Shown here piece after piece: positions 32,452 to 63,125 of a stretch of DNA of 64,000 nucleotides; position 1 is the stretch's first letter, and the number at the start of each line of letters is the position of its first letter. The notes beneath the pieces are model-generated. The model was given only the letters and a program-made list of their open reading frames with translations, was not told the DNA's origin and made no database searches. The position numbers and the translations under genes were made by a program. Origin of the DNA: Glaciecola sp. HTCC2999 (GTDB lineage: Bacteria > Pseudomonadota > Gammaproteobacteria > Enterobacterales > Alteromonadaceae); the NCBI RefSeq assembly GCF_000155775.1, contig NZ_DS989810.1, forward strand, positions 702,172 through 766,171, written 5' to 3'.

Positions 32452-32528
32452 GGCCCGATAGCTCAGTTGGTTAGAGCATCCGACTCATAATCGGCAGGTC
32501 CCCTGTTCAAGTCAGGGTCGGGCCACCA
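32452..32528 (+). tRNA. ileX: tRNA with CAT anticodon, probably tRNA-Ile2 (lysidine-modified)
   Basis: A complete 77-base cloverleaf: acceptor GGCCCGA/TCGGGCC, D arm GCTC...GAGC, anticodon loop CTCATAA, T loop TTCAAGT, encoded CCA. The CAT anticodon is shared by initiator, elongator-Met and Ile2 tRNAs. C4-G69 and C5-G68 in the acceptor stem are the pairs that TilS favours in E. coli, which points to Ile2; elongator Met remains possible. The 27-43 pair is T-C, a mismatch. The 3' half is the island's attachment site. Confidence 0.9.
32484..32528 (+). repeat. attL (tRNA 3' half)
   Basis: From the anticodon loop to the encoded CCA. It matches 63,081-63,125 at 43 of 45 positions; similarity fades in the T-rich run that follows CCA. 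Confidence 0.88.
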
Positions 32529-32617: not shown

Positions 32618-32941
32618 TTAAAATGGAATGTCAATATCGGAGTCGCATTGGGCCCACCTTGTCAACTCTGAATCAGTTGGTAATGGCATACCAGTTAAAC
32701 TGAAATTTTCGCTATCCTTTCCACTCTCGTCTATCACTGCTATTTCGATAAGCGAACTTGGGAAATTAACGCATTGATTAAGGCTTACTGCAACTAAAAG
32801 TTCCTTATGGCTCTTACACCTATGCACTTCTCTTTCACAGTATTGGCAAAACCTAATATTTTTATTTGCTGTAAAAGCAAGCTCGCCCCAAATAGCAAGG
32901 CATTTATACCCCCAAATACAGTTCATTGTAATGCCCTTCAT
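32618..32941 (-). CDS. Small cysteine-rich (zinc-ribbon-like) protein
   Basis: 107 residues from the ATG at 32,939-32,941, chosen because GAGGT sits 7 bases ahead of it. Cysteines occur as CIWGYKC and FCQYCEREVHRC, a pattern compatible with a zinc ribbon, followed by KSHKELLVAVSLNQCVNFP. I recall similar short gammaproteobacterial proteins of unknown function. It is the last gene of the minus-strand run at the left end of the island; whether it belongs to the DprA operon is unclear (63 bp gap). Confidence 0.6.
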   Translation of the reverse strand: MKGITMNCIWGYKCLAIWGELAFTANKNIRFCQYCEREVHRCKSHKELLVAVSLNQCVNFPSSLIEIAVIDESGKDSENFSLTGMPLPTDSELTRWAQCDSDIDIPF

Positions 32942-33004
32942 ATTTTCAACCTCAAAATTCCTTAAAAATTTAAGTCTCAACAGTCACATAGATATTTCTT
33001 AGGT

Positions 33005-33316
33005 TTATCTAAATATAAATTCATCCATATTGGCTTTGAGAGCTATTGAAACTACTTTTTCATTTTCATTAATTGTAATAAGAAAAACCGTTGAGCTTTC
33101 TTTATGCACCCAGAACTCCAGACTATTCTGTTTATCTATATAATTAGTCTTTAATGGTAAATCTAACTTTTCAATCTCTTTACTTTGAAGTGATAATAAA
33201 GCTGCTTCTATCCCTTTGCAGTCATCAACAGTATTAATCTGTTCTTTGAAATAGTAGACAACATATTTTGAGATGTTTATTTTACCTATATTAGGCGTTG
33301 CAATATTTGTAAGCAT
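33005..33316 (-). CDS. Hypothetical protein
   Basis: 103 residues, alpha/beta-looking, no signal or membrane segment. It follows the membrane-anchored protease gene by 10 bp on the same strand, so it is probably the next gene of that operon. No family recognised. Confidence 0.55.
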   Translation of the reverse strand: MLTNIATPNIGKINISKYVVYYFKEQINTVDDCKGIEAALLSLQSKEIEKLDLPLKTNYIDKQNSLEFWVHKESSTVFLITINENEKVVSIALKANMDEFIFR

Positions 33317-33326
33317 AATTATCCTA

Positions 33327-34244
33327 CTATAAATAAAAAGGTATATTGTCGTTAGCTACAAAAAGTCGCTGAGTGCGGTTCGCTATGCCTTCTTTTAAAA
33401 GTTCATCATAGGTAGGGAAAAACCCACCGTATGAATCTCTAATCTTGGTTTTGTGTATGAAACTTTTGCTTACCTTTAATCTTTCTAGTGCAGTGTAAAG
33501 GTTTTCATTAAAAAAACGCAGGTGTGGGCTATCATAACTTACTAATTGAGTAGTTTTTTTGATGTAAGTGGCATGAAAACCTATCCATGCTTTTGAGTGT
33601 ATATATCTTGAGTCACTTGCCAAAAGTAATCTAGTACAAGCACTAATGCATTGACCTAATACCTCTATTTGAATGTTATATTGCTTAATAAATGAAGCCA
33701 TTATTATAGCCTCTTGGGGACTACCTCCACCTGAGTGTATTTCTAATGCTATAGGTTTATCCCAATCCACATTATCTGCATTCATTATTTTTCGGATTAG
33801 AGTGTTAGCAGAATTTATTTCAATCGCACCTTTGTATAAAAACTGGTTTGGTTTATCGTTGTCTTGAATTATTACAAAGTCGGGTTGATAGTAATTTGAA
33901 AACGAAGCGTGCTTATGCGACGTATTACTGGCTCCCCAGCCAAACATTGCTATGCAGCCTACCAAAGCCAACCAAACTAATGAACTAAAAACTTTAAAGT
34001 TATATGTTTCGAATGCTAAGCGGTTTGCTTTGAAAAAAGAGACTAATCCTGCAATCGAGAATAAAGCATATGCTGCTAATGCTTCGAAAAGACTAAATGT
34101 TTCTTCCTCAATATACACAGTAAGAAGATATCCAACAACAGGCAGTATGAATACATAAAGTATTAATACTGTAGTTCGTGTTGATTTAATTATAAGAAGT
34201 TTTCTTTGGGACTGAGAAATGAGTGTTAGGTCAGTATTAATCAA
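33327..34244 (-). CDS. Membrane-anchored ClpP/crotonase-fold serine protease-like protein
   Basis: 305 residues. Three hydrophobic segments occupy about residues 25-125; a soluble ClpP-like domain follows. Seen there: IALEIHSGGGSPQEA (oxyanion-region glycines), GQCISACTRLLLASDSRYI (candidate nucleophile Ser in ISAC) and IGFHATY (candidate His). This matches the COG3904-type periplasmic-facing ClpP relatives in pattern. It is 13 bp downstream of a second, soluble ClpP-like gene in an operon with DprA, PRTase and HAD genes, which suggests a proteolytic arm of that system. Catalysis is not proven. Confidence 0.75.
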   Translation of the reverse strand: MINTDLTLISQSQRKLLIIKSTRTTVLILYVFILPVVGYLLTVYIEEETFSLFEALAAYALFSIAGLVSFFKANRLAFETYNFKVFSSLVWLALVGCIAMFGWGASNTSHKHASFSNYYQPDFVIIQDNDKPNQFLYKGAIEINSANTLIRKIMNADNVDWDKPIALEIHSGGGSPQEAIIMASFIKQYNIQIEVLGQCISACTRLLLASDSRYIHSKAWIGFHATYIKKTTQLVSYDSPHLRFFNENLYTALERLKVSKSFIHKTKIRDSYGGFFPTYDELLKEGIANRTQRLFVANDNIPFYL

Positions 34245-34257
34245 TGAGAACCACCTA

Positions 34258-34863
34258 CTATAATGAAGTTTTAGCTATTTTTCTTAGACTGGTGCTTGCT
34301 AGTCGGCTCTTCCAACGTTCATTAACTTCAGATGTGCCCATCCATAAGTCCGTACCATCTATAACACTATTCATTTCTTCACTTGTTAAAAACCCATGGT
34401 AAAACGATTTAAATGCTTCGTTTAAATGTAAATCAGTAAAGCGTTGTCTAGCTTTCATTTCGTGACCTTTACCTGCCATGCCGCCTGAATAGTTATGGAT
34501 CATAAACGATAAATGCTCAGATACTTCGAGGTCATGGCAGGCCATGGCAATTATTGTTCCTGCGGATGCTACGGTGCCTGACAATTTCCCGATGACCTTC
34601 GCTTTAGAATGATGGATAGCATCTACAATCATAAATGCAGAATCAATAATCCCTCCCGGTGTATTTATATGTAAGATAATAGTAGTGTCAATTTCAGCAG
34701 TATGCAGTATGAAGCAAAGCTCGTTGTAGAGCTTCGGTTCATCTATGCTGCCCGTAATAAATGCATGGGTATTATTATTTTTGTCTATAATTATAGGTAC
34801 ATCCCAATCCCAAAGTCGATTTGATGAGATTTTTGGTAATTCAAAAGTAGGCAAATCTGCCAT
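34258..34863 (-). CDS. ClpP-like serine protease (soluble)
   Basis: 201 residues from the ATG at 34,861-34,863 (MADLPTFELPKI), preceded by CGGAGAA at good spacing; a farther upstream start lacks such a site. The ClpP core is clear: ILHINTPGGIIDSAFMIVDAI, GTVASAGTIIAMAC (nucleophile Ser) and LSFMIHNYSGG (His). The housekeeping-ClpP motif GQAASM is replaced by GTVASA, as in phage and island-borne ClpP-like proteins. Second protease gene of the DprA-PRTase-HAD operon. Confidence 0.8.
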   Translation of the reverse strand: MADLPTFELPKISSNRLWDWDVPIIIDKNNNTHAFITGSIDEPKLYNELCFILHTAEIDTTIILHINTPGGIIDSAFMIVDAIHHSKAKVIGKLSGTVASAGTIIAMACHDLEVSEHLSFMIHNYSGGMAGKGHEMKARQRFTDLHLNEAFKSFYHGFLTSEEMNSVIDGTDLWMGTSEVNERWKSRLASTSLRKIAKTSL

Positions 34864-34920
34864 GGCATTCTCCGAAGAATAAAAAGAAGGTGTTAAACAA
34901 TATTTCAATATAAATTCTCT

Positions 34921-35889
34921 CTAAAATAATGAATATTGAATATTTTTTGATTTTTCTGTAATTAGTTTATCTAACAGGTTACCCGCAAGACACATAGTAT
35001 CCTCAGGCTTAATCACATGGATGTTTGTATCTTTTAAAATTAGTTGTCGGTTTAGGTCATATTTTGGATTCCGAGAATCTATTGATATGTTATACATGAC
35101 AGCTCTTTTAATATCGTATTGGAGAGCATACTCCATAGCTAATCGTGCCCCACTATCATTTCCCTGATTATTTTTGGCATAGCTTGCCACTAAAATAACT
35201 GCGTCACTAAAAAGAGCTTGTAGTCGATCTCGTTCTTGATAACGAGCTGTGAATTCGAGTTTTGAAGAGGCATCATGCATATATTCAGTGACCAATAAAC
35301 CTCCGCTTTCAACTATCTCCTTTGCGAGCGATTGATTTCCTCTAGGTAAAATATTATGTAATGAGCTCGGTAATACAGCTACTGTTTTCCCTTGTTTTAT
35401 AACAGCTTGTTTGTGTGCAATAGCATCACATCCATTGGCTAAGCCACTTACAATAATAATATTTTTTGATACCAGTTCATCAACTAAAGAAATTTCTGAT
35501 TTTTCTGTACTAAAATCTGGATCTAAAAGACCAATTACAGCTACGCTTGGTTTACATGGATCAAGTAATCTAATATCTCCTTGATAAAATAAAGCAACTG
35601 GTTTTTGGCTATTTTTAACCGTACCTCTGTGAATTGGGAAATCTTCGTCGACAATAGTTGTAAGTCCATCGATAACGTCTTTTCTTTTTATTAACTCAGA
35701 TAATATTGCAGCCTGTTTATCATTAAAACGGCATAACGAAACTAATTTGTCTTTAGTTGATAAATTAAGGCAATCAATTAGGGACGCTTTACAACTCAAT
35801 ACATCTTGATGCTTGATTATCCAGGCTTTTCCAATGCCTTTAAAGCTAAGGGCTGTAAGAACATTTAGTGCTTGTTGAGAATATTTCAT
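34921..35889 (-). CDS. DprA/Smf-like (SLOG superfamily) protein
   Basis: 322 residues. The Rossmann-like DprA core lies at about 110-265: VAVIGLLDPD, IIVSGLANGCDAIAHKQAVIKQGKTVAVLPSSLHNILPRGNQSLAKEI, GGLLVTEY and the R-x-R region (ARYQERDRLQALFSDAVILV). Housekeeping DprA loads RecA on incoming ssDNA; here it is an extra, divergent copy inside an island next to PRTase, HAD and ClpP-like genes. SLOG proteins in such settings are thought to bind nucleotides or nucleic acid in conflict systems. It replaces the usual GGTG-type glycine stretch with IGLLDPD, so ligand binding may differ. Confidence 0.8.
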   Translation of the reverse strand: MKYSQQALNVLTALSFKGIGKAWIIKHQDVLSCKASLIDCLNLSTKDKLVSLCRFNDKQAAILSELIKRKDVIDGLTTIVDEDFPIHRGTVKNSQKPVALFYQGDIRLLDPCKPSVAVIGLLDPDFSTEKSEISLVDELVSKNIIIVSGLANGCDAIAHKQAVIKQGKTVAVLPSSLHNILPRGNQSLAKEIVESGGLLVTEYMHDASSKLEFTARYQERDRLQALFSDAVILVASYAKNNQGNDSGARLAMEYALQYDIKRAVMYNISIDSRNPKYDLNRQLILKDTNIHVIKPEDTMCLAGNLLDKLITEKSKNIQYSLF

Positions 35890-35899
35890 ATCTATTACC

Positions 35900-36517
35900 T
35901 TAATGACAGCGACTAGTTTTAGACACTACGTAAGACACGACTTTGTTTGCACCAGCATCTAGAAGAGTTTGAAGCATATCTTCAATTACATTCACATCAA
36001 TGGTGTAAACATCATCCACTAGAATAATATCTCTACCTTTAATTTTTGGAGAAATAATACATGTATCTTTTGTTATACCTTCATATGGAAGAATACCTTT
36101 ATCTCGAAAGGAATAAGAGTATCTCAGGTGTGTAGTTTGTGTTGGCTTCATTCTAGTTATCCACTGTGTACCGTTTTTCATGCCAGACATGATTTCCACT
36201 GCATTAGAAACAGCATCTAAAAATAGTAATTGAGCATCAGTATATTTACTGTTTTGTTTAGCCCTTGGCATCACGCACACTACAGGCCTATTTAAACATT
36301 CTTGTATAACGACATTAGGTAAATCCTTGCATAATACATCGCAGACCATCTCTGCATCTTGCATCAATTCGTTAATACCTCTGCTGTGATTATCATTTTT
36401 TAAACGATTGATAAAATCAGGGTTACCCGGTCGATTCATACCAAGATATTTATAATGGAAAAAACCGGGAACGGAATGTTTAAGATATGAATTTGGTTTT
36501 ATCGTAAATGTATTCAA
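35900..36517 (-). CDS. Phosphoribosyltransferase-like protein (ComF-like)
   Basis: 205 residues with a PRPP-loop signature DIILVDDVYTIDVNVIEDMLQTLLDAGANKVVSYVVSKT near the C-terminus. An earlier conserved-looking stretch is VCVMPRAKQNSKYTDAQLLFLDAVSNAV. ComF-type PRTases are linked with DprA in natural transformation; this copy sits in the same order beside a DprA-like gene but in an island operon with proteases. No zinc-finger is visible. The next gene (HAD) ends 3 bp before it. Confidence 0.75.
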   Translation of the reverse strand: MNTFTIKPNSYLKHSVPGFFHYKYLGMNRPGNPDFINRLKNDNHSRGINELMQDAEMVCDVLCKDLPNVVIQECLNRPVVCVMPRAKQNSKYTDAQLLFLDAVSNAVEIMSGMKNGTQWITRMKPTQTTHLRYSYSFRDKGILPYEGITKDTCIISPKIKGRDIILVDDVYTIDVNVIEDMLQTLLDAGANKVVSYVVSKTSRCH

Positions 36518-36520
36518 ATT

Positions 36521-37093
36521 TTATACCTTTTGTATGGAGTTAGCTGGAATGCCGATATCTTGGGCAAGTTTAATTTGTGCTGATTCGTTTTCAAATACCA
36601 TCATGTTATTTACATCAACACTCAAAAACTCAATAGCATGTTGATATTTATTGATATTGAGAGGTCTGTCATTTTTGGATAATACCCCATTAAAATAGGG
36701 CATTAAGTTATGTGCACTAAGTGTCATTTCTGCTCTAACTCTACTTGCATTTGTAATCAGAAAGATATCGCAGTTAAATCTGAGGTTTTTCAGTTTAGCT
36801 ACAACAGGCTGGTTGATGTGGGTTGAAGAGATAAACTCAGCATCAAACTTCACTTTTAATTGAGTAATTCTTTTAAGTTCAAAAATAGAAATGCTAGGCA
36901 GCTGTTTACGGAGCTCATTTCTGTTAAATCGAGCATATACTGGCTTTCTTAAAACCGTTTTATATGGTAACACTACATTAACTGCTTTTTGATAAGCTAA
37001 AAAATTAGCTTCATCGGTATGCACAAGTGTACCGTCTAAATCAAAAAAAACTGTCTTTCGAGGATTATGTACAAGGCTATTAATATTTTGCAT
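36521..37093 (-). CDS. HAD-superfamily hydrolase
   Basis: 190 residues with HAD motif I FFDLDGTLVHTD (two Asp) near residue 18, motif II IFLITNASRVRAEM (Thr/Asn) and a late acidic stretch (MMVFENESAQIKLAQDIGIPANSI) matching the motif IV region, where the usual DD is NE. Likely acts on a phosphorylated nucleotide or sugar. It is 9 bp from the DUF4258-like gene and 3 bp from the PRTase gene, so it could dephosphorylate a product or substrate of the latter (inference). Confidence 0.8.
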   Translation of the reverse strand: MQNINSLVHNPRKTVFFDLDGTLVHTDEANFLAYQKAVNVVLPYKTVLRKPVYARFNRNELRKQLPSISIFELKRITQLKVKFDAEFISSTHINQPVVAKLKNLRFNCDIFLITNASRVRAEMTLSAHNLMPYFNGVLSKNDRPLNINKYQHAIEFLSVDVNNMMVFENESAQIKLAQDIGIPANSIQKV

Positions 37094-37102
37094 TTTCAGC
37101 TC

Positions 37103-37513
37103 CTATCTATACGCACAAGTTATTAATACATTATCGTGAGTCAACACTAAATAAAGGCGCCTTAATTTGTTGATATCAACAGAATTACCAAAACAGCGCT
37201 TAATTTTCTTAATACCGTGTTTTTTGAGCGAGACACTGATAGTGTTCTTAGTATGTTGAAATTTTTCATCTCCATACTCTAATACCAACTGTATCCATTC
37301 ATTTTTGATACCGCGTTGTTGAATTCGTGTATCAGCATGCTTGGTGTTAATTAATCCAGTATTTACATCATATTCAGTTTCATCTCTAAGGCGCTCAATG
37401 GCCTCATGGTGATAATATGTTGCTGACTGACGACTTATGGTTTGTTCATCACTCGTGCTTTTCCCTTTATTTGATTGGGGAATGTTAATTAGACTATTTG
37501 ACCGATTTATCAT
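37103..37513 (-). CDS. DUF4258-like protein
   Basis: 136 residues: a polar N-terminus (about 1-55), then HADTRIQQRGIKNEWIQLVLEYGDE and a C-terminal LYLVLTHDNVLITCAYR strand. This resembles DUF4258 (RelE-like toxin-fold relatives) with its H-x-R...qRgI and terminal T-x-Y-R pattern. First gene of the minus-strand operon, so it may be the toxic or regulatory component. Family placement is from memory of the pattern. Confidence 0.65.
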   Translation of the reverse strand: MINRSNSLINIPQSNKGKSTSDEQTISRQSATYYHHEAIERLRDETEYDVNTGLINTKHADTRIQQRGIKNEWIQLVLEYGDEKFQHTKNTISVSLKKHGIKKIKRCFGNSVDINKLRRLYLVLTHDNVLITCAYR

Positions 37514-38908: not shown

Positions 38909-39613
38909 ATGGGGGGTGTTGTGAACGATGAAAAAAAACTAGCTCAGTTTCTATCACTTATTATAAAACAAGTTGGATACGTATTGAGACACCCAGATCA
39001 TGAACAATATAGAGAAGATATTGTAAATGAAACGTTTATTAAGCTATTCAAATCAGGTGCATTTGAAAAATATTCATTAGATACTTCTGAAAATGGAAGA
39101 ATAGCGGCTGCTTACATAAAAAAAACAATTCATAGTTGCAGTATGGATTACTTCAGTAAGTCAGGTATATATCGACGTTTAACTAAGCGAGAACAAGAAA
39201 GCACGGGTCTAAAGACTCAATCAATAACGAATGAAAATTTTGATGATTTATCAGCAAATGCGACTTTTTTCCAAGAAGATACAAAAACTTACACATCTGA
39301 ACAATATCTTATAGCTAAAGAAGCTTATGGAAATATTCAAAAATGCTTTTCATTGATTACTGCTTCAATAACAAATGATACTCGAGCAAAATTTTTAAAG
39401 GAGGCTTTCTGGAATTCTGATTATTATGATGTGCCTATCAAACAACTTGCTCAAATATTAGGTTACCTAAAAAGTAATCCGACCCAGGATTTTAATCGTT
39501 TTGTTGATAAAATAAGTAACTGTACACAAAAATATAATATAAAAATTGTTAATTCTGGGGAACAAATTGAGTTTCTAAGGCAAATAATATCATTCGGTGG
39601 AGAACAAACGTAA
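38909..39613 (+). CDS. ECF-like RNA polymerase sigma factor
   Basis: 234 residues. Region 2 is seen as EQYREDIVNETFIKLFKSGAFEKYS and AAAYIKKTIHSCSMDYFSK, and region 4 as IKQLAQILGYLKSNPTQDFNRFVDKI, with a variable acidic linker. A GTG at 38,921 behind GGGGGGTG is an alternative start. Its stop overlaps the ATG of the next gene (TAATG), so translation is coupled. ECF factors redirect RNA polymerase to stress promoters and are normally held by an anti-sigma partner. Here the partner candidate is the 182-residue product or the giant Lon-STAND protein. Region 4 is weaker than region 2, so some doubt remains. Confidence 0.7.
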   Translation: MGGVVNDEKKLAQFLSLIIKQVGYVLRHPDHEQYREDIVNETFIKLFKSGAFEKYSLDTSENGRIAAAYIKKTIHSCSMDYFSKSGIYRRLTKREQESTGLKTQSITNENFDDLSANATFFQEDTKTYTSEQYLIAKEAYGNIQKCFSLITASITNDTRAKFLKEAFWNSDYYDVPIKQLAQILGYLKSNPTQDFNRFVDKISNCTQKYNIKIVNSGEQIEFLRQIISFGGEQT

Positions 39614-40161
39614 TGGCTGACGAAAACTTAACAAAACTCATAAAAATGGTGCATGAAGATGAGATAAATAAATCTCTAGTACAAGAAGTTTTGAATGAAA
39701 CCGAATTAAGTATCGATAACAATTTAATAGAGTTAGTCCATACTTTAGTTAAAAGGGCAAATAGTAATATTTTATCTTTCCCAAAAAAATCAATTAGTAT
39801 CGCTCAAAGTCAACTTATGGCTGCTGCTGGACAAAATCTAGGGAACTGGTTTGACTATCCTTTAATTTTCGCTTCTTCTGGGATCATGGTCGATATTCGA
39901 AAGGTTTTAAGTAGTAAGGACGAAGTTGATGTGTATATTCAAGCATATGGTGAAGACAAAAAACAAATTCATGATATTTTACTACCATTTAAAAATAAAA
40001 ATTTACAAGTTCGATTGACCGTTGAGGGACAAGAAGTTCTCAAAGCAGACATTTATGTGGATGAATCAGCAACTGCCGCTGAAGGTACTGGGTTACTTCT
40101 TTCTTTTGAAGATAAAGAATTACATGGAGTTATAGACTTTCAAATCATAGAAAGTAATTAA
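39613..40161 (+). CDS. Middle protein of the sigma/STAND operon, unknown family
   Basis: 182 residues, no membrane segment. The N-terminal 60 residues look helical (LTKLIKMVHEDEINKSLVQEVLNE), and the rest is beta-rich with DEVDVYIQAYGEDKKQI, LQVRLTVEGQEVLKADIYVDESATAAEGTGLLLSFEDKELHGVIDFQII. No family recognised. It is locked between the sigma factor (1 bp overlap) and the giant protein (11 bp gap). It may be an anti-sigma factor, adaptor or protease substrate; this is inference from position only. Confidence 0.7.
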   Translation: MADENLTKLIKMVHEDEINKSLVQEVLNETELSIDNNLIELVHTLVKRANSNILSFPKKSISIAQSQLMAAAGQNLGNWFDYPLIFASSGIMVDIRKVLSSKDEVDVYIQAYGEDKKQIHDILLPFKNKNLQVRLTVEGQEVLKADIYVDESATAAEGTGLLLSFEDKELHGVIDFQIIESN

Positions 40162-40172
40162 AGGCGTTGAAT

Positions 40173-43100
40173 ATGATTCATGTACTTACCAGTACTGGCG
40201 ATAATCTAAAAATAGACGTTCGTCTTCAAGAAGTGCGTAAGGGTGATCCTGCTGTGACTGCAACTTTGTCTTTAGCTCTAAAGCCCATTCTCTCAAGTAC
40301 TGTATTTACTGAACAACAAGAATATCTCTCAACATCGGCTAAAGCTGCTTATGTTGCTCTTAATAAAATTGATCAACGCAACCGTTTTAAAGCTTCTGTA
40401 ACGTTTCACTCAACTTCTTTAAGCAATGTTAATTTAATAGCCGGCAGTACAAGTGCTACTTTAGGGTATACGCTAGCATTATTTAATGCATTTTGGACAA
40501 AACAGCTAGGGAAAGGCGAAGGTATAACAACTCCTATTTTCGCAACTGGAGAAGTACATGGTAGTGGGAATATCATCTCAATTAGTTATTTACAGGAAAA
40601 ACTTCAAAATACCATAAAAGTTGTTAGAGACCAGCAGATATCAAAGTTTACTATTTGCATACCACAATCCAATATATCGGATATTTCTGAGGTACAAAAA
40701 AAAGAAATCGAAGAAATTGGTGGAACTGTTATATCAGCAAATACAATTCCTGAGTTATTAGAACAACTTTTGCACAATGAATATGATGGAGAAGCACTTG
40801 GTCGGTGGACACCTTTTAAAGGATTGAAAAGTTTCGAATATGAAGATTCAATTAGGTTTTTTGGGCGTGATAGGGAAATTGAGAGACTGTATGAAGATTT
40901 AGAGCATAATCGTGGAATTCTTATTGTTTCAGGGCCTACTGGTTCGGGTAAATCATCATTGGTTAAAGCAGGATTGATACCGAAGTTAGCAAATCAAAAA
41001 AACAATTTTAATTGGATTTCTGTGACTCCTACTTCACTTGATAAACCGTTGATTACCTTTTTATTAAATGAAAGCCTTAACATGAATTCAGAATGTATTT
41101 CAGATAAAACTAACATAAAAGCCTTACTCGCCCAGCCTGAAATTTACTTAGATGAGTTAGTTTTGCAGATAAATAATCATAGGAGCCTATTTTTACTTCA
41201 TATCGATCAATTTGAAGATTTTTTCAATCAAGAGAATAAACATACAAGTATTGAAGATTTGCAGCTGATCCATAAGATCACAAAAGCGACAGAAAATATA
41301 AAAGTCGTTTTATCCATAAGGAACGAATACCTATCCACATTATTAGAATCAGGATTTATTGCTTCACCAGTAATCACCAATGTATCAGAGAATTTATCTA
41401 TTGATGCTTGGCGAGATATCGTCATTAAACAGGCTGCTTTTTCGGGTCTAACCTTTGAGAACACACCTGAAAACTTGGCACAAAGAATTATCAATGACGC
41501 CATTCAAACCCCTAATGCGCTTCCAATGGTTGAGTTTGTTTTAGAACAACTTTATGAAAGTGTCAAGCAAGAAAATAGTAATATTAACTATCTGCGAAAT
41601 AATGATTATGATTTCTTAGGAGGAATTTCAGGTGCTATAGCGCAAAGAGCAGAGGATGCAGTGTCGCTAGCACATTCAAAAGATAATACAGTTCACCATT
41701 TATTTAGTGTTATTGTAGGGGTCACTACTGATGGAATACCTTATTCAAAGCAAGTCGCTATCAATGAATCAATTATTGATAACAACATAGAATTATCTAA
41801 TTTAATTCAATCCCTTCTAGACAGTAATATTCTAATGAAGTTTGACTCAAATGACAAAATTGTGATGAAACTTACTCATGATAGTTTATTTGAAAACTGG
41901 GCAAGACTTAAAAGTTGGCTGGAAAGTTCAAAATTATTTTTAGACTGGAAGAATACAATTGAATTAGGCTACCGAAGATGGCAAAAAAATGAGTTCAATA
42001 CAAAACATCTAATCAATGACACCTCATTACTTAATGAAGGGGTGGAATTTAAAAATGAGGGATTCCTCTTAAACCATGAACTAAGTCACTTTATAAAGAA
42101 ATCAATAAAGAATAAGCGAAATAAAGTCATTTCTAATTTCAGCTTGTTTTTAATATTTCCCATCATAGTTGCAATGGTTTTTTGGTGGGATAAAAACATT
42201 AAAAGAAGCGAGTATTATGCTGCTGTAGGATATAAATGGGAGGTGCCTTTTGGTGTTGGCGAGCTAAGCGCTGAACAAATGAAGAAAAAACAATTTAGGT
42301 ATCATTTCATCTACCAAGGTGGGTTGTTGGCTAAATATCTTGGATACGGTAATAAAGTAATCGAATTGCGACATGAAAATTCTTTAGGTTACATGTCTGA
42401 ACTTAATTCCTTAGCTGAGCAGAAAGACGCTAGAATTCAATATTATTATAAAGAAAATGGAGAGATAGACACAGCCTCAACATATAGTTTGACAGATATG
42501 TTGCTTAATAAAAAAAGTTACGAATTCTCAAAAAATCGTGTAACAGTAACTTTTTTAAATAAAAATAACAATTCAGCAAGTTTCAATGGTCCACCTCAAA
42601 ATCATGAATCAGTTTTTTTCAAACGCAGTAATGTTACTCGAATAAAAAAATACTTTAATACCCAAGGATATGTAGAAAAAGAAATTTATCAAAAAGATAG
42701 CTTCGGCGGTATTGGGAATGATGAATTTGGTCGAAGTGGTTACAGTTACTCATATAATAAATATGGCTTAGTTAATGAACTTACTGACATATCTACAGAT
42801 AAATTACATCTTGAAAAGAACAAAAAAAGAATCATAACGAAATATAATTACAACTCGATGGGACTGATAGACACTATTGAGTTTAATAACAATAGTTCTA
42901 TAAGTTCTAAAAATAATAATGAGGTAGCTAAAAAATCATACATTTATGACTCTTATGGAAACATACTAAAAACTCTCCACTTTAATGAGAATAACACCCT
43001 GTCAAATAATAAAAATGGTGTAGCAGTTACAAAATCACACATTAATAAACAAGGCTGGATAGTAGAATTACAATTTTTTGATAAAGATTACAAGCAAGTA

Positions 43101-46100
43101 AAAAATGAAGAGGATGTTTACCGCTACGTCATAGATTACACTACAGAGGGTTATTTAAGATCCATAAAATCTATTTATTCTGAATCAATACCTAATGAAA
43201 ATAATGTTATATTTTCGTTGAAGGAATACTCATATGATAAAAATTTTAGGATTATTAAAACACTCTTTTCAAATGAAAAGGCAGAATATAATAACAGTTT
43301 TGAAACTAAGTATAATGAAAATGGAAATATTGTAGAGCAAATATATATTGACGAGCATGGTCAACCCATAACAAAAGAAAATAAAGTTGCAAAAATAATT
43401 TACGAATATAACGAAAACAACCATATTGTTAGCTCTACTTATTACGACATTTCAAATGCTCTCATAATAAACCCAACTAATGGTTGTGCTATACACATAA
43501 CAGATCGTAATCATTTGGGTTATTTGCTTTCAGAAAAGTGCTTAGACACTCAAAAAGCACCTACAATTATGTCTGATGGTAGCGCTGGCTTGAATATATC
43601 CTATGACGATAATGGCAATTTGATAAAAACAATGTTTTTAGGCATAGATGAAAAACCGATGATTCACCCTGAATATGGCATCGCTGGATATGAGAACGCC
43701 TATGACGATAGTGGCAATGTAGTAAGATTTTTGAACTTAGGCACAGATGAAAAACCAATGATTGATCCTAAGTATGGCTATGCTGGCTTGAATAAATCCT
43801 ATGATGATAATGGCAATGTGATAAAAACAATATATTTAGGCATAGATAGAAAACCGATGATTCACCCTGAATATGGCATCGTTGGATATGAGAACGCCTA
43901 TGACGATAGTGGCAATGTAGTAAGATTTTTGAACTTAGGCACAGATGAAAAACCAATGATTCATCCTAAGTATGGCTATGCTGGATATGAGAAAGCCTAT
44001 GACGATAATGGTAATGTGGTAAAAGATTTCAACTTAGGCACAGATGAAAAACTAATGATTCATCCTAAGTATGGCTATGCTGGATATGAGAAAGCCTATG
44101 ACGATAATGGCAATGTGATAAAAACAATGTTTTTAGGCATAGATAGAAAACCGATGATTTACCCTGAATATGGCATCGCTGGATATGAGAAAGCCTATGA
44201 CGATAATGGTAATGTGGTAAAAGATTTCAACTTAGGCACAGATGAAAAACCAATGATTCATCCTAAGTATGGCTATGCTGGCTTGAATAAATCCTATGAT
44301 GATAATGGCAATGTGATAAAAGAAATATATTTAGGCATAGATAGAAAACCGATGATTCACCCTGAATATGGCATCGCTGGATATGAGAACGCCTATGACG
44401 ATAATGGTAATGTGGTAAAAGAAATATATTTAGGTACAGATGAAAAACCAATGATTCATCCTAAGTATGGCTATGCTGGCTTGAATAAATCCTATGATGA
44501 TAATGGCAATGTGATAAAAGAAATATATTTAGACACAAATGAAAAACCGATGATTCACCCTGAATATGGCATCGCTGGATATGAGAACGCCTATGACGAT
44601 AGTGGCAATGTAGTAAGATTTTTGAACTTAGGCACAGATGAAAAACCAATGATTCATCCTAAGTATGGCTATGCTTGCTTGAATAAATCCTATGATGATA
44701 ATGGCAATGTGATAAAAGAAATATATTTAGGCATAGATAGAAAACCGATGATTCACCCTGAATATGGCATCGCTGGATATGAGAACGCCTATGACGATAA
44801 TGGCAATGTGATAAAAGAAATATATTTAGACACAAATGAAAAACCGATGATTCATCCTAAGTATGGCATCGCTGGTTTTGTGCAATCCTATGACGATAAT
44901 GGCAATGTGATAAAAGAAATATATTTAGGCATAGATAGAAAACCGATGATTCACCCTGAATATGGCATCGCTGGATATGAGAAAGCCTATGACGATAATG
45001 GTAATGTGGTAAAAGATTTCAACTTAGGCACAGATGAAAAACCAATGATTCATCCTAAGTATGGCTATGCTGGATATGAGAAAGCCTATGACGATAATGG
45101 CAATGTAGTAAAATTTTTGAACTTAGGCATAGATGAAAAACCGATGATTCACCCTGAATATGGCATCGCTGGATATGAGAACGCCTATGACGATAGTGGC
45201 AATGTAGTAAGATTTTTGAACTTAGGCACAGATGAAAAACCAATGATTCATCCTAAGTATGGCTATGCTTGCTTGAATAAATCCTATGATGATAATGGCA
45301 ATGTGATAAAAGAAATATATTTAGGCATAGATAGAAAACCGATGATTCACCCTGAATATGGCATCGCTGGATATGAGAACGCCTATGACGATAGTGGCAA
45401 TGTAGTAAGATTTTTGAACTTAGGCACAGATGAAAAACCAATGATTCATCCTGAGTATGGCTATGCTGGATATGAGAAAGCCTATGACGATAATGGCAAT
45501 GTAGTAAAATTTTTGAACTTAGGCATAGATGAAAAACCAATGATTCATCCTAAGTATGGTTATGCTGGATATGAGAAAGCCTATGACGATAATGGCAATG
45601 TGATAAAAGAAATATATTTAGACACAAATGAAAAACCGATGATTCATCCTAAGTATGGCATCGCTGGTTTTGTGCAATCCTATGACGATAATGGCAATGT
45701 GGTAAAAGATCTCAACTTAGGCATAGATAAAAAAACAATGATTCATCCTAAGTATGGCTATGCTGGCTTGAATAAATCCTATGATGATAATGGCAATGTG
45801 ATAAAAGAAATATATTTAGGCACAGATGAAAAACCAATGACTCATCCTAAGTATGGCTATGCTGGCTTGAATAAATCCTATGATGATAATGGTAATGTGA
45901 TAAAAACAATATATTTAGGCACAGATGGAATACCGGTGATTCATCCTAAGTATGGCGATGCTGGATATGAAAAAGCCTATGACGATAATGGCAATTTGAT
46001 AAAAATAATATATTTAGGCACAGATGGAAAACCGATGATTCATCCTAAGTATGGCGATGCTGGATATGAAAAAGCCTATGACGATAATGGCAATGTGATA

Positions 46101-46157
46101 AAAATAATATATTTAGGCACAGATGGAAAACCGATGATTCATCCTAAGGGGTTATAA
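40173..46157 (+). CDS. Lon-like / nSTAND1 ATPase / transmembrane / tandem-repeat protein
   Basis: 1,994 residues from the ATG at 40,173 (AAAGG 8 bases ahead). Residues 1-200 resemble a Lon protease domain: AGSTSATLGYTLAL for Lon GPSAG (Ser94), FATGEVHGSGNIISISYLQEKL for TGEITLRG...GGLKEKL, where the catalytic Lys is Gln141. Residues 212-650 are an nSTAND1-type ATPase: FKGLKSFEYEDSIRFFGRDREI, Walker A GPTGSGKSS (254-262), Walker B LFLLHIDQFEDFF (339-351). One helix follows at about 655-675, with the positive charges before it, so the C-terminal 1,320 residues should be outside the cytoplasm. Those begin with a WEVPFGVGELSAEQ module, pass through diverged YD-like repeats, and end in 26 near-identical 33-residue repeats. 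Probably a membrane-spanning sensor/effector. Confidence 0.85.
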   Translation: MIHVLTSTGDNLKIDVRLQEVRKGDPAVTATLSLALKPILSSTVFTEQQEYLSTSAKAAYVALNKIDQRNRFKASVTFHSTSLSNVNLIAGSTSATLGYTLALFNAFWTKQLGKGEGITTPIFATGEVHGSGNIISISYLQEKLQNTIKVVRDQQISKFTICIPQSNISDISEVQKKEIEEIGGTVISANTIPELLEQLLHNEYDGEALGRWTPFKGLKSFEYEDSIRFFGRDREIERLYEDLEHNRGILIVSGPTGSGKSSLVKAGLIPKLANQKNNFNWISVTPTSLDKPLITFLLNESLNMNSECISDKTNIKALLAQPEIYLDELVLQINNHRSLFLLHIDQFEDFFNQENKHTSIEDLQLIHKITKATENIKVVLSIRNEYLSTLLESGFIASPVITNVSENLSIDAWRDIVIKQAAFSGLTFENTPENLAQRIINDAIQTPNALPMVEFVLEQLYESVKQENSNINYLRNNDYDFLGGISGAIAQRAEDAVSLAHSKDNTVHHLFSVIVGVTTDGIPYSKQVAINESIIDNNIELSNLIQSLLDSNILMKFDSNDKIVMKLTHDSLFENWARLKSWLESSKLFLDWKNTIELGYRRWQKNEFNTKHLINDTSLLNEGVEFKNEGFLLNHELSHFIKKSIKNKRNKVISNFSLFLIFPIIVAMVFWWDKNIKRSEYYAAVGYKWEVPFGVGELSAEQMKKKQFRYHFIYQGGLLAKYLGYGNKVIELRHENSLGYMSELNSLAEQKDARIQYYYKENGEIDTASTYSLTDMLLNKKSYEFSKNRVTVTFLNKNNNSASFNGPPQNHESVFFKRSNVTRIKKYFNTQGYVEKEIYQKDSFGGIGNDEFGRSGYSYSYNKYGLVNELTDISTDKLHLEKNKKRIITKYNYNSMGLIDTIEFNNNSSISSKNNNEVAKKSYIYDSYGNILKTLHFNENNTLSNNKNGVAVTKSHINKQGWIVELQFFDKDYKQVKNEEDVYRYVIDYTTEGYLRSIKSIYSESIPNENNVIFSLKEYSYDKNFRIIKTLFSNEKAEYNNSFETKYNENGNIVEQIYIDEHGQPITKENKVAKIIYEYNENNHIVSSTYYDISNALIINPTNGCAIHITDRNHLGYLLSEKCLDTQKAPTIMSDGSAGLNISYDDNGNLIKTMFLGIDEKPMIHPEYGIAGYENAYDDSGNVVRFLNLGTDEKPMIDPKYGYAGLNKSYDDNGNVIKTIYLGIDRKPMIHPEYGIVGYENAYDDSGNVVRFLNLGTDEKPMIHPKYGYAGYEKAYDDNGNVVKDFNLGTDEKLMIHPKYGYAGYEKAYDDNGNVIKTMFLGIDRKPMIYPEYGIAGYEKAYDDNGNVVKDFNLGTDEKPMIHPKYGYAGLNKSYDDNGNVIKEIYLGIDRKPMIHPEYGIAGYENAYDDNGNVVKEIYLGTDEKPMIHPKYGYAGLNKSYDDNGNVIKEIYLDTNEKPMIHPEYGIAGYENAYDDSGNVVRFLNLGTDEKPMIHPKYGYACLNKSYDDNGNVIKEIYLGIDRKPMIHPEYGIAGYENAYDDNGNVIKEIYLDTNEKPMIHPKYGIAGFVQSYDDNGNVIKEIYLGIDRKPMIHPEYGIAGYEKAYDDNGNVVKDFNLGTDEKPMIHPKYGYAGYEKAYDDNGNVVKFLNLGIDEKPMIHPEYGIAGYENAYDDSGNVVRFLNLGTDEKPMIHPKYGYACLNKSYDDNGNVIKEIYLGIDRKPMIHPEYGIAGYENAYDDSGNVVRFLNLGTDEKPMIHPEYGYAGYEKAYDDNGNVVKFLNLGIDEKPMIHPKYGYAGYEKAYDDNGNVIKEIYLDTNEKPMIHPKYGIAGFVQSYDDNGNVVKDLNLGIDKKTMIHPKYGYAGLNKSYDDNGNVIKEIYLGTDEKPMTHPKYGYAGLNKSYDDNGNVIKTIYLGTDGIPVIHPKYGDAGYEKAYDDNGNLIKIIYLGTDGKPMIHPKYGDAGYEKAYDDNGNVIKIIYLGTDGKPMIHPKGL
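43602..46157 (+). repeat. 99 bp coding tandem repeat, 25 full copies plus one partial
   Basis: In-frame 33-residue units of the type YDDNGNVIKEIYLG-DEKPMIHP-YGYAG-EKA, counted from 43,602; the 26th unit is cut to 26 residues by the stop. Units differ mainly in three cassettes: the middle (KEIYLGIDR, RFLNLGTDE, KDFNLGTDE), K/E before YG, and the end (GYENA, GYEKA, GLNKS, GFVQS). Units 11-12 and 17-18 share the rare ACLNKS variant, pointing to block duplication. About eight older diverged copies precede the array from roughly residue 850 of the protein. Confidence 0.97.
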
Positions 46158-51283: not shown

Positions 51284-51445
51284 ATGCTCTTGATAATATT
51301 GTCATTCATCATCTATCTAACTATTCAACACCCTCACATAATACTTACATTGTTACGCCTTAGCATAGGGATCATTACTGCCCTTATTGCCATAGTGACA
51401 AAGCTGTATTCATTGTATCAATCTGTAGCTAAGGAACGACGATGA
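51284..51445 (+). CDS. Small membrane peptide
   Basis: 53 residues from the ATG at 51,284, chosen for the AAGGAGA site just ahead. It is almost entirely hydrophobic (LLIILSFIIYLTIQ ... LLRLSIGIITALIAIVTKLYSLY) with a basic end. Its stop overlaps the recombinase ATG by 4 bp. No family recognised. Confidence 0.5.
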   Translation: MLLIILSFIIYLTIQHPHIILTLLRLSIGIITALIAIVTKLYSLYQSVAKERR

Positions 51446-52113
51446 AACACACTAACTATGTAGCCTATTACCGCGTGTCTACTTCAAAACAAGGTCAGAC
51501 GGGATTAGGTATGCAAGCGCAACAACAAGCCATCACTGATTTTTTACATCATCATGGAGGCAAGCTGGTTGCCGAGTTTACTGAAGTAGGCTCTGGTAAA
51601 AAAGCAGACCGCCCTGAGTTTGAAAAAGCCGTCGATTATGCACACCTTGCCAATGCAGTGTTATTGGTGGCTAAACTCGATAGGCTCAGTAGAGACTTAC
51701 ACTTTATTACTGAGCTACAGAAAAAAGGCATACGTTTTAAACTCGCCGATTTTCCTGACATCGACCAGCTCACCATTCATATCTTAGCCGCAATGGCTCA
51801 ACATGAAGCTCAGATGATTTCACAACGCACTAAAGCGGCACTTCGTGCTGCCAAGGCTCGAGGTGTCACACTCGGTAACCCTCAGCTTGATACCTATCGC
51901 AATCACAACCCTCAGCTCGCCACACTCGTTCGCACGACTGCACAACGTCAATGGCGGCAAAAAATCATCAAAGTCATTCATCACATCCAACAGTTACAGC
52001 CTCAAGTAACGAGTGTAGAGATAGCTAAAACACTCAACCAACGTGGGTTATCTAGCTATCGCAATAAGCCTTTTACAGGTGCCATTGTTTCTCGCTTACT
52101 GCGCCAACAATAA
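51442..52113 (+). CDS. Serine recombinase (resolvase/invertase type)
   Basis: 223 residues. Catalytic Ser lies in AYYRVSTSKQGQTGLGMQAQ (about residue 12), followed by VLLVAKLDRLSRD (conserved Arg) and a C-terminal helix-turn-helix like region (SVEIAKTLNQRGLSSYRNKPFTGAIVSRLL). Domain order fits a small resolvase rather than a large serine integrase. It may resolve element dimers. It is adjacent to the tyrosine integrase. Confidence 0.88.
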   Translation: MKHTNYVAYYRVSTSKQGQTGLGMQAQQQAITDFLHHHGGKLVAEFTEVGSGKKADRPEFEKAVDYAHLANAVLLVAKLDRLSRDLHFITELQKKGIRFKLADFPDIDQLTIHILAAMAQHEAQMISQRTKAALRAAKARGVTLGNPQLDTYRNHNPQLATLVRTTAQRQWRQKIIKVIHHIQQLQPQVTSVEIAKTLNQRGLSSYRNKPFTGAIVSRLLRQQ

Positions 52114-52182
52114 TCATACATGGCAGGTTTATCCTGCCTGTATATCTATGTAATCGTTAATCATTTCATACTGGAGATACAC

Positions 52183-53334
52183 ATGAAATATACCCATATC
52201 GACCAAACCTTTATTGATAACCTTCCTACCCCTACAGATAAAATTAAAGCTGAATATAGAGCCGATAATTTACCTAAAGGGTTTCGGATTGAAATACGTA
52301 AGACATCCAAAGGCATTGGTACTTATCGGTTTCGAACCAAAGTAAAAGACCACAATCTTGGCCGTACTAATGCATTGTCATTGGAGCAAGCCTTACAACA
52401 AGCCGCACAACTTATCCCTTCCCCAACGCCCCCCCATATCCCCCTTTCACCACCCATCGCCCAAGCATCCCCCACTTGCACATTCACCCTCAATGAGTTT
52501 TGGGAGCAGTACTATTGGCCCCACATTAAAACCCGATTACGCACCTGTCGTAATATTGAATCCATGTGGCGTATACGCATTCAGCCCACCTTTGGTCATC
52601 AACGGCTCGATGACATCAAAGTACTAGAATTAGAACGCTTCCAGACGAGCTTAATCGAAATGCAGTTATCCGGCAGTCATGTCACAGGCCATATTAAGCT
52701 GCTCAGTCGTATGTTTACCCTTGCTATTCAATGGGAGCTTATTACCAAAAACCCTTGTGATAAAGTGGAATACATGAAGTTTGATAATCAAAAGGAACGC
52801 TTTTTAAGTAGCGATGAACAGACGCGTTTTATTAGTGTCCTGATGGAACACCCTGAGCGCCCTGTGAATCTATTGATGATTTTCTTACTCGTCACCGGTG
52901 TAAGAAGCGGTGTGGCTAAATCGTTGCGATGGTCATGGATCAATATGGAGAAACAGATAATTACTGTACCACCTAGTATTGCTAAGAATAAGAAACAAAA
53001 TACTATTTTTCTCAATACAACTGCGATGGACATTCTCAAACGCCTAGCTGGAATCAATCCAACATATGTGTTTATCAATCCAATGACACAACTGCCCTAC
53101 AATGATTTTAAGAAATCGTTTAAAACCGCACTCAAAGCAGCACAGATTTCAGATTCTGTGAGGATCCATGATTTGCGTCACACCTTTTGTAGTAACTTAG
53201 TGTCTAACAATGTGTCTCTCGCCAGTGTGCAGCAATTAGCAAATCATGCCTGCTATTCAACGACACTTCGCTACGCCAAAGTATCACAAGATACACTCAG
53301 AGAAGCTTGTCAAATTGCAGCGATTCAAATCTGA
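52183..53334 (+). CDS. int: Tyrosine recombinase / integrase of the island
   Basis: 383 residues from the ATG at 52,183, which has TGGAGA ahead of it. Arg lies in FLLVTGVRSGVAKSLRWSWIN, His-x-x-Arg in HDLRHTFCSN, and the catalytic Tyr in ANHACYSTTLRYAKVS. The N-terminus holds an Arm-type DNA-binding segment (FRIEIRKTSKGIGTYRFRTK) and a SAM-like core-binding domain. Its last 24 residues are duplicated at 62,798-62,872 in the remnant element. It presumably acts at the tRNA site bounding the island. Confidence 0.92.
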   Translation: MKYTHIDQTFIDNLPTPTDKIKAEYRADNLPKGFRIEIRKTSKGIGTYRFRTKVKDHNLGRTNALSLEQALQQAAQLIPSPTPPHIPLSPPIAQASPTCTFTLNEFWEQYYWPHIKTRLRTCRNIESMWRIRIQPTFGHQRLDDIKVLELERFQTSLIEMQLSGSHVTGHIKLLSRMFTLAIQWELITKNPCDKVEYMKFDNQKERFLSSDEQTRFISVLMEHPERPVNLLMIFLLVTGVRSGVAKSLRWSWINMEKQIITVPPSIAKNKKQNTIFLNTTAMDILKRLAGINPTYVFINPMTQLPYNDFKKSFKTALKAAQISDSVRIHDLRHTFCSNLVSNNVSLASVQQLANHACYSTTLRYAKVSQDTLREACQIAAIQI

Positions 53335-53342
53335 AAACTAAC

Positions 53343-53549: not shown

Positions 53550-53552
53550 ACT

Positions 53553-62872: not shown

Positions 62873-62880
62873 AAACTAAC

Positions 62881-62927: not shown

Positions 62928-63080
62928 ATTATTTTTTTCGCTTTTCCGCTGAGTACTTTTGGATATGCAGCATGGACTGGATGTATTTCCGTTAACTTTC
63001 CGATGGTTACAAGGCGGAAAAAACAACATCAAAGTAATAAGCCATTGATTATACTAGTAATATAGTACCATTCAGTTTAG

Positions 63081-63125
63081 CTCATAATCGGCAGGTCCCC
63101 CGTTCAAGTCGGGGTCGGGCCACCA
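63081..63125 (+). repeat. attR (partial tRNA copy)
   Basis: Matches the tRNA 3' half except two paired changes in the T stem (CCCTG...CAGGG becomes CCCCG...CGGGG, T-A to C-G), so pairing is kept. It has no acceptor 5' half or D arm and cannot form a tRNA. Confidence 0.9.

What the first reader, a model, noticed from the sequence alone, without database searches (positions are those of the whole stretch)
32618..37513. DUF4258-HAD-PRTase-DprA-ClpP-membrane ClpP operon: second candidate system
At least six same-strand genes follow each other closely (gaps of about 3-60 bp). They combine a DprA/SLOG protein and a ComF-like PRTase (partners in DNA uptake), a HAD hydrolase, a DUF4258-like protein and two ClpP-fold proteases, one membrane-bound. 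The mix of nucleic acid/nucleotide sensing, nucleotide chemistry and proteolysis in an island suggests an immune module, possibly acting on incoming ssDNA. I do not know a described system with this full set.
Basis: partly seen in the sequence, partly recalled or inferred. Interest (0 to 1): 0.82.

Follow-up and report, generated by a model that had tools for sequence, protein, structure and literature searches.

The report
Split ShosTA-like operon with added proteases
A mobile island in a bacterial genome carries an unusual version of a known type of anti-virus suicide system, in which the toxin seems to be split into two separate genes, followed by two extra protease genes of uncertain role.

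Summary
The operon is real: eight same-strand genes, window 37513 to 32618, gaps 3-24 bp as listed, beside a tRNA-Met in an AT-rich island. Its core is not a new kind of system. HAD, PRTase and DprA are the parts of ShosTA, a toxin-antitoxin phage-defence system: ShosT of phages P2 4C9 and PfAC02a is a HAD-PRTase fusion; here the halves are separate genes. Foldseek's top hit for the predicted PRTase is solved ShosT, though ComF scores higher on realignment. The three-gene core recurs in a genome of the same order, a Synechocystis plasmid, a Caldilineales and a Fusibacter genome. DUF4258, both ClpPs and the two small genes occur in 0 of 7 other loci of this PRTase family. The first ClpP is phage-type: 57% identical to Alteromonas phage AD45 and 63-69% to ten viral contigs. 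Verdict: a divergent, split-toxin ShosTA-like system with passenger or accessory genes; strict ShosTA membership is unproven, and a six-gene immune machine is unsupported but not excluded.

The parts
37103..37513 (-). DUF4258-like protein, 136 aa, first gene of the operon
   Evidence: PF14076 E 6e-5, 23.7 bits, cut-off 25; not in the 7 other loci of the PRTase family
36521..37093 (-). HAD-family phosphohydrolase, 190 aa, intact DLDGT motif; proposed separate first half of a split ShosT
   Evidence: HAD_2 5e-10; homologues beside PRTase and DprA in L127, L006, L010, L011; profile match to the HAD part of Pf ShosT, probability 85%, E 7e-6
35900..36517 (-). ComF/ShosT-like phosphoribosyltransferase, 205 aa; proposed second half of a split ShosT
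   Evidence: PADLOC ShosT 2.8e-4; model pLDDT 83, Foldseek top hit ShosT 8zvd (E 7e-5, TMq 0.52), VIA Z 11.8 to 8zvc over 177 residues, Z 13.8 to ComF; profile match to a ShosT set, probability 87%, E 3.6e-6
34921..35889 (-). Divergent DprA/SLOG protein, 322 aa; proposed ShosA-like antitoxin/DNA partner
   Evidence: PF02481 9e-36; PADLOC ShosA 3.8e-45 (this model also hits housekeeping-type DprA); family clade with support 1.0, apart from the sampled housekeeping-type DprAs
34258..34908 (-). Phage-type ClpP protease, 216 aa as listed (probable ATG start at 34863), catalytic Ser-His-Asp kept
   Evidence: phrog_1827 6e-50; 63-69% to ten viral contigs; 57% to Alteromonas phage AD45; triad invariant in 9 of 9 aligned
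33327..34244 (-). Membrane ClpP-fold protease, 305 aa, three predicted N-terminal membrane segments, protease domain predicted periplasmic
   Evidence: PF00574 25 bits, cut-off 20.2; hydropathy segments peaking near 25-43, 50-68, 83-101; S201-H224-D270 kept in its one good relative
33005..33316 (-). 103-aa protein of unknown family, co-directional
   Evidence: no Pfam, NCBIfam or PADLOC match at E <= 0.1; no plasmid match
32618..32980 (-). 120-aa Cys-rich (zinc-ribbon-like by eye) protein, last gene of the operon
   Evidence: no family match at E <= 0.1; 2 of 147 relatives match: own and a weak one, E 4.5e-4
32452..32528 (+). tRNA-Met (CAT) gene, likely island attachment site (left)
   Evidence: ARAGORN, Rfam
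63080..63125 (+). Partial copy of the tRNA-Met 3' end, right attachment-type repeat
   Evidence: a further copy near G000:C8:778,245
51442..53334 (+). Serine resolvase and tyrosine integrase of the island
   Evidence: PF00239 2e-29, PF00589 5e-27; similar genes in the next tandem element L123

Best explanation
The core is a ShosTA-like toxin-antitoxin phage-defence locus whose toxin is made as two polypeptides. The PRTase (half of ShosT) would use PRPP and a purine-type base, and the HAD protein would act as the phosphohydrolase/pyrophosphatase half; together they would disturb the purine nucleotide pool and damage DNA replication. The DprA-like protein would be the antitoxin, keeping the toxin in check or repairing its damage by working at DNA, until a phage function disturbs the balance and the cell stops or dies before phage release. 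The island carries the operon between hosts by integrating at tRNA-Met. DUF4258, ClpP, membrane ClpP and the two small genes are co-transcribed accessories or passengers, not part of the conserved unit. Shown here: gene order, domains, intact HAD and ClpP motifs, the PRTase DD motif, a recurring three-gene core, mobile context. Inferred: toxicity, antitoxin role, nucleotide chemistry, defence, co-transcription.
For: Three-gene unit: HAD-PRTase-DprA adjacent in the window, G1073 (L127), Synechocystis plasmid pSYLB (L006) and Caldilineales (L010); Fusibacter (L011) has PRTase-DprA-HAD; UBA664 (L009) has PRTase-DprA. So 5 of 8 loci hold all three and 6 of 8 hold PRTase plus DprA; L007 and L008 hold a lone PRTase. 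ShosT counterparts are fusions: P2 4C9 (PADLOC ShosT 3e-294; Pfam Hydrolase 2.9e-4 and Pribosyltran 1.1e-4, both under their cut-offs) and Pf PfAC02a (HAD_2 4e-23, Pribosyltran 1e-8, annotated ShosT, beside a DprA annotated ShosA). Solved ShosT chains match the P2 4C9 protein over its whole length, 977 bits; one of these entries is titled 'The ShosTA toxin-antitoxin system provides phage defence'. The PRTase model maps onto ShosT residues 168-366, the part after its HAD stretch. L010's PRTase hits PADLOC ShosT at 4e-9. The DprA clade lies apart from the sampled housekeeping-type DprAs and next to Pf ShosA, support 0.848. The genome has another, housekeeping-type DprA. Defence by a DprA-PRTase pair is published (PMC9122126, passage read); ShosT as PRTase and pyrophosphatase is summarised in PMC12593503 (passage read).
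Against: The window PRTase matches the ShosT profile only at 2.8e-4, on realignment ComF scores higher (Z 13.8 against 11.8), Foldseek TM to ShosT is only 0.52 at rmsd 8.2, and a profile of the family found no ShosT chain in the PDB by sequence at E <= 1. The ShosA profile matches 200 of 229 genomes of the class at E 1e-25, and the genome's other DprA scores 219 bits against 152 for ours, so the ShosA hit alone proves nothing; by sequence our DprA profile hits a competence DprA (3uqz, 6e-20) and ShosA (9vzo, 1e-19) equally. In the PRTase tree this family is a group of its own, not nested among the four ShosTs used; those four are themselves very divergent. The family lacks the G-[AST]-R signature found in all 9 other DprAs printed, so DNA binding may differ. 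L054, a high-scoring two-gene ShosTA, shows no HAD gene in its 3.8-kb locus, so HAD is not universal. No activity was tested.
Confidence: 0.7

Rival explanations
1. All six to eight genes form one immune system: the ShosTA-like core senses or signals, and the ClpP pair acts as the proteolytic effector or removes the DprA antitoxin on infection, with the membrane ClpP at the envelope.
For: Same strand, gaps 3-24 bp as listed, the ClpP genes directly behind DprA; catalytic triads of both proteases kept.
Against: 0 of 7 other loci of this PRTase family have any of the five extra genes. The ClpP is a phage auxiliary-type gene found beside ribonucleotide reductase genes in viral contigs L045 and L047. 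The membrane ClpP protease domain is predicted on the periplasmic side, where it could not join a cytosolic ClpP barrel (inference). None of the eight proteins has an AAA+ domain match.
Confidence: 0.15
2. The DprA and ComF-like PRTase serve DNA uptake (natural transformation) rather than defence.
For: DprA and ComF are transformation proteins; VIA places the PRTase closest to H. pylori ComF (Z 13.8).
Against: The DprA family is a clade apart from the sampled housekeeping-type DprAs and the genome has another DprA. The unit is patchy and mobile: 2 of 305 genomes of the order have this PRTase, and one copy is on a plasmid.
Confidence: 0.05
3. The PRTase and HAD make a nucleoside-like signal, as proposed for the Ter systems, and the DprA/SLOG protein binds that nucleotide ligand rather than DNA; the membrane ClpP could be a downstream responder.
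For: HAD plus PRTase signal synthesis is proposed for Ter (PMC7824862 passage); the family has lost the G-[AST]-R signature of DprA, compatible with another ligand.
Against: No Ter-domain match in the eight operon proteins; no ligand shown; the 7 other loci lack the extra genes of this operon.
Confidence: 0.08

Closest known systems
ShosTA of E. coli P2-like phages (P2 4C9; PADLOC ShosT PDLC03012)
   Same: HAD-like plus PRTase toxin parts and a DprA-like partner in one locus on a mobile element; PRTase fold.
   Different: ShosT is one 424-aa fusion with a degenerate HAD motif and the DprA gene comes first; here HAD and PRTase are separate genes, the HAD motif is intact, the order is HAD-PRTase-DprA, and five more genes precede or follow.
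ShosTA of Pseudomonas filamentous phage PfAC02a
   Same: HAD-PRTase then DprA, intact HAD DLDNT motif, same gene order; its DprA is the nearest neighbour of this clade in the tree.
   Different: Fused HAD-PRTase with C-terminal zinc ribbons; weak similarity of the PRTase, profile probability 36%.
PsyrTA / RqlHI
   Same: DprA-type partner and a ComF-like PRTase domain (PMC5512222 passage).
   Different: There the PRTase is fused to a helicase (same passage); no helicase here.
ComF-DprA competence proteins
   Same: PRTase fold and SLOG fold.
   Different: Divergent clade, linked HAD gene, mobile and patchy distribution.
Phage auxiliary ClpP (phrog_1827; Alteromonas phage AD45)
   Same: 57-69% identity, same catalytic residues, same C-terminal region.
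   Different: In the viral contigs looked at it sits beside nucleotide-metabolism genes; here it follows a ShosTA-like core and precedes a membrane ClpP.

Membership tests
ShosTA | DprA-family protein encoded next to a phosphoribosyltransferase | tested here: met
   DprA 9e-36; PRTase by ShosT/ComF profiles and fold; gap 10 bp
ShosTA | PRTase belongs with ShosT rather than another PRTase group | tested here: inconclusive
   Best PADLOC hit ShosT 2.8e-4, 4e-9 for relative L010; Foldseek first hit ShosT, but VIA puts ComF above ShosT, no ShosT chain was hit by sequence in the PDB, and the tree gives a separate group
ShosTA | DprA belongs with ShosA rather than housekeeping DprA | tested here: inconclusive
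   Apart from the 29 DprAs that I labelled housekeeping-type, next to Pf ShosA at 0.848; but the four ShosAs are not one clade there and the ShosA profile is not specific
ShosTA | HAD-like part accompanies the PRTase, fused or adjacent (fused in the P2 and Pf ShosT; not seen in the L054 locus, so not strictly defining) | tested here: met
   Separate HAD gene directly upstream (3 bp gap); likewise in L127, L006, L010, downstream in L011; as a fusion in one polypeptide it is not met
ShosTA | Toxic PRTase, neutralised by DprA; phage protection | not testable with these tools
   needs expression and phage assays
Competence DprA-ComF | DprA of the housekeeping/competence clade | tested here: not met
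   Family clade with support 1.0, apart from the 29 housekeeping-type DprAs; G-[AST]-R replaced by G-L-[LV] in 5 of 5 family members printed
Ter system | TerB/TerC/TerD/TerF components with the PRTase and HAD | tested here: not met
   No Ter-domain match at E <= 0.1 in any of the 8 operon proteins
Phage head-maturation protease | ClpP gene in a head/packaging module | tested here: not met
   Best match is phrog_1827 ATP-dependent protease, head-maturation families weaker; viral contig L045 has it beside ribonucleotide reductase genes

The most novel reading that the evidence does not exclude
A ShosTA-like core has recruited a phage-derived ClpP and a membrane ClpP-fold protease into one operon, so that proteolysis sets the DprA antitoxin level or the phage-like ClpP acts as bait or sensor for infection: a protease-gated, split-toxin DprA-PRTase immune system of a kind not found in the literature searched here.
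Probability: 0.12. Interest if true: 0.7.

Novelty: new variant of a known kind. Interest (0 to 1): 0.42.

Why it matters
It suggests that the ShosT toxin can exist as two separate proteins, HAD and PRTase, in a coherent, scattered family (the window's own order, a cyanobacterial plasmid, a Caldilineales and a Fusibacter genome) that the PADLOC ShosT profile scores only weakly. That makes the division of labour between the two ShosT halves directly testable. The linked phage-type ClpP raises a smaller, testable question of whether proteolysis can regulate such a toxin-antitoxin pair.

Tried and rejected
Six-gene conserved system: rejected as a conserved unit in what was searched, because tblastn of all eight proteins against the 7 other core loci found no DUF4258, ClpP, membrane ClpP, 103-aa or 120-aa gene at E 0.01. 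ShosA profile hit as proof of membership: rejected, since the profile matches 200 of 229 class genomes at E 1e-25 and scores the genome's other DprA (219 bits) above our protein (152 bits). Structure of membrane ClpP: the model failed (pLDDT 41.5) and was not used. Viral contigs for PRTase, DprA, HAD, DUF4258 and membrane ClpP: no relatives confirmed, though those scans rest on short peptide patterns and can miss much. The single genome-contig scan also rested on two short patterns and found 5 loci, so the family is probably larger than counted. The 25 PRTase hits other than our own in the phylum sample cover about 40-50 residues each (E 2e-7 or worse); they were taken as general PRTase similarity and dropped from the core counts. 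G075 (E 5e-4) was dropped likewise. L004 (G070) shows the same gene sizes and match values as L009 and was counted once. Empty-site test: only partly informative. In G664 the tRNA is followed by a kinase-like gene, but that contig ends under 1 kb after the tRNA, and that gene was not found in the 17 kb around the last tRNA-end copy in our genome, so the right-hand chromosomal junction is not confirmed. Promoter scan: nothing beyond chance; terminator-like sites 6 against 3.1 expected, none just after the operon's end. Literature: searches for ShosTA, ShosT/ShosA, DprA with PRTase, HAD or ClpP listed no paper that I recognised as describing a ClpP-containing DprA-PRTase operon or a HAD gene separate from ShosT; the lists were capped, only listings, abstracts and matching passages were seen, and most subscription papers are not in that library. 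Pu et al. 2025 (the ShosTA mechanism paper) is not held; its content is known to me here only through the review passage in PMC12593503.
Full report
What is there. Window 32618-37513 holds eight - strand genes in a row: DUF4258-like, HAD, PRTase, DprA, ClpP, membrane ClpP, a 103-aa and a 120-aa gene, with gaps of 9, 3, 10, 12, 13, 10 and 24 bp between the listed ORFs. The ClpP ORF probably starts at an internal ATG at 34863, because its phage relatives align from that Met. G+C of this stretch is 0.31-0.38 per kb, against 0.39-0.44 per kb in 26-32 kb to its left.

Setting. The operon ends about 90 bp from a tRNA-Met gene (32452-32528). A partial copy of the tRNA 3' end lies at 63080-63125, and another near base 778,245 of the same contig. 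A resolvase and an integrase lie at 51442-53334; a second, neighbouring element has, by eye, near-identical resolvase, integrase and 505-aa genes and its own cargo. So the operon looks like cargo of an integrative element that exists in tandem copies. In G664 of the same genus the tRNA is followed by a kinase-like gene and not by this operon, but that contig ends under 1 kb later, and the kinase-like gene was not found beyond the last tRNA-end copy in our genome, so the outer junction is not proven. By reading, the integrase 3' end is repeated around 62830-63050, which suggests that the metal-efflux region 53.6-62.8 kb came in as another insertion.

What the core is. HAD_2, DprA (PF02481) and ClpP domains are clear. 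The PRTase has no Pfam hit; its named hits are PADLOC ShosT, 2.8e-4, and NCBIfam ComF, 0.0056. An AlphaFold model built from six family members (pLDDT 83) has solved ShosT (8zvd, E 7e-5, TMq 0.52, rmsd 8.2) as first Foldseek hit and ComF second. VIA realignment gives ComF Z 13.8 (162 residues, rmsd 3.0) and ShosT 8zvc Z 11.8 (177 residues, rmsd 3.6), with our PRTase laid on ShosT residues 168-365. By sequence alone the family profile reached no ShosT chain in the PDB at E 1; its best hits were PRPP synthetases at 0.34. In ShosT of phages P2 4C9 and PfAC02a the residues before the PRTase are a HAD stretch (clear in PfAC02a; under the Pfam cut-off in P2 4C9). Solved ShosT chains match the P2 4C9 protein over its full length. 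So the separate HAD gene and PRTase gene here correspond to the two halves of ShosT, and the DprA takes the place of ShosA.

Conservation. I compared 8 loci of this PRTase family: the window and 7 others (L127, L006, L010, L011, L009, L007, L008; L004 matches L009 in gene sizes and match values and was not counted again). HAD, PRTase and DprA are together in 5 of 8: window, G1073 of the same order (L127), Synechocystis plasmid pSYLB (L006, where an Abi_2 gene lies nearby), a Caldilineales (L010) and Fusibacter (L011, with HAD downstream, 23% identity). L009 has PRTase and DprA only; L007 and L008 have a lone PRTase. The window HAD does not reach L011's HAD by tblastn at E 0.01, but blastp 5.8e-6 and Pfam HAD_2 1.4e-8 do. 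The five extra genes of the window are in 0 of the 7 others.

Frequency. This PRTase is rare in what was searched: in a class sample 3 of 274 genomes at E 0.001 (own, G070, and a weak fragment in G075), 2 of 305 of the order at E 1e-10 (own and G1073), 1 of 72,556 plasmid records and none of 50,697 phage records. In the phylum sample 26 of 398 genomes matched at E 0.001, but the 25 others only over about 40-50 residues. The DUF4258 gene matched 1 plasmid record; the two small genes none.

DprA. In a FastTree of 38 DprAs (5 family, 4 ShosA, 29 that I labelled housekeeping-type, taken from L002 and L056-L083) the family is one clade, support 1.0, next to Pf ShosA (0.848, midpoint root) and apart from the housekeeping group; the P2 ShosA and the two ShosAs of L054 and L055 fall elsewhere, so ShosA itself is not one clade here. 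In the 14 rows printed, the Rossmann G-[AST]-R signature is present in 9 of 9 others and replaced by G-L-[LV] in 5 of 5 family members; L127 also reads GLL. I recall that this region contacts nucleic acid phosphates in DprA; that was not tested. The ShosA profile is not specific: 200 of 229 class genomes match at E 1e-25. A profile of three family DprAs hits the solved competence DprA 3uqz (6e-20) and ShosA 9vzo (1e-19) equally well.

Mechanism. Published: a DprA-PRTase pair in P2-like phages protects against T7 and lambda, and DprA homologues act as antitoxins (PMC9122126, passage). ShosT is summarised as PRTase and pyrophosphatase disturbing purine metabolism, ShosA as DNA-binding and promoting recombination, T7 Gp0.7 as trigger (PMC12593503, passage, citing Pu et al. 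2025, which I could not read). For PfAC02a the authors describe ShosTA as two genes and could not separate its effect from that of Kiwa (PMC11878078, passages). I therefore think the window core works the same way with a two-piece toxin. The HAD here keeps its DLDGT motif, unlike P2 ShosT and like Pf ShosT. The PRTase keeps the DD motif; after it the family reads YTxx[VI]N in 8 of 8, where P2, Pf and L055 ShosT read TxG, so its substrate handling may differ.

The extra genes. ClpP is a phage-type protease: phrog_1827 6e-50, 63-69% identity to ten viral contigs (in L045, the contig whose neighbours were scanned, it lies beside ribonucleotide reductase, polymerase and pyrophosphohydrolase-like genes, and L047 has a reductase too), 57% to Alteromonas phage AD45, best of 109 phage records at E 1e-20. 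Its Ser-His-Asp (115, 138, 187 as listed) is invariant in 9 of 9. The membrane ClpP has three hydrophobic segments and, by the positive-inside rule, a periplasmic protease domain (inferred); Ser201, His224 and Asp270 are kept in its one good relative, a shorter reading frame in G658 (51%). It matched no phage or plasmid record. Only the two island ClpPs were found in the genome, while 9 of 9 other genomes of the genus have a normal-scoring ClpP; since the assembly is 82% complete, the normal one may simply be missing from it. The DUF4258 gene could be a toxin-type RNase domain (recalled, not tested).

Verdict. Ordinary in kind, new in detail: a divergent split-toxin ShosTA-like core on a tRNA-Met island, with unproven accessory genes.

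Noticed in passing
window 38909-46157: Three + strand genes beside the operon: a 234-aa and a 182-aa protein and a 1996-aa protein with an nSTAND1 NTPase (9.5e-65) followed by long repeats with MORN_2 matches; probably a separate defence-type cargo.
   Followed up: partly
L123:1821-6278 (G000:C8:765820-770277): The next tandem element, with a like integrase and resolvase, carries genes weakly like ZorA (3e-5) among its cargo.
   Followed up: partly
window 53300-53550 and 62830-63050: The integrase 3' end and its flank appear twice, around a metal-efflux region; looks like a further tandem insertion that broke one attachment repeat (read).
   Followed up: no
L007:5468-6124, L008:6968-7624: Lone copies of this PRTase in two Bacilli genomes, with no DprA or HAD match in the 13-15 kb held; may have another role.
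   Followed up: partly
L120:7615-8088 (G658): A shorter relative of the membrane ClpP (157 aa, lacking the part with the membrane segments) near an integrase-like gene in the same genus.
   Followed up: partly
G000, whole assembly: No housekeeping ClpP found in this 82% complete assembly, though 9 of 9 other genomes of the genus have one.
   Followed up: partly
L054:876-2379 (G029): A two-gene ShosTA (ShosT 7e-45, ShosA 4e-91), with no HAD gene seen in its 3.8-kb locus.
   Followed up: partly
L115:3866-4483 (plasmid pIOMTU792): A distant ClpP-like gene close to dfrA23 and ISCR1 on resistance plasmids.
   Followed up: no
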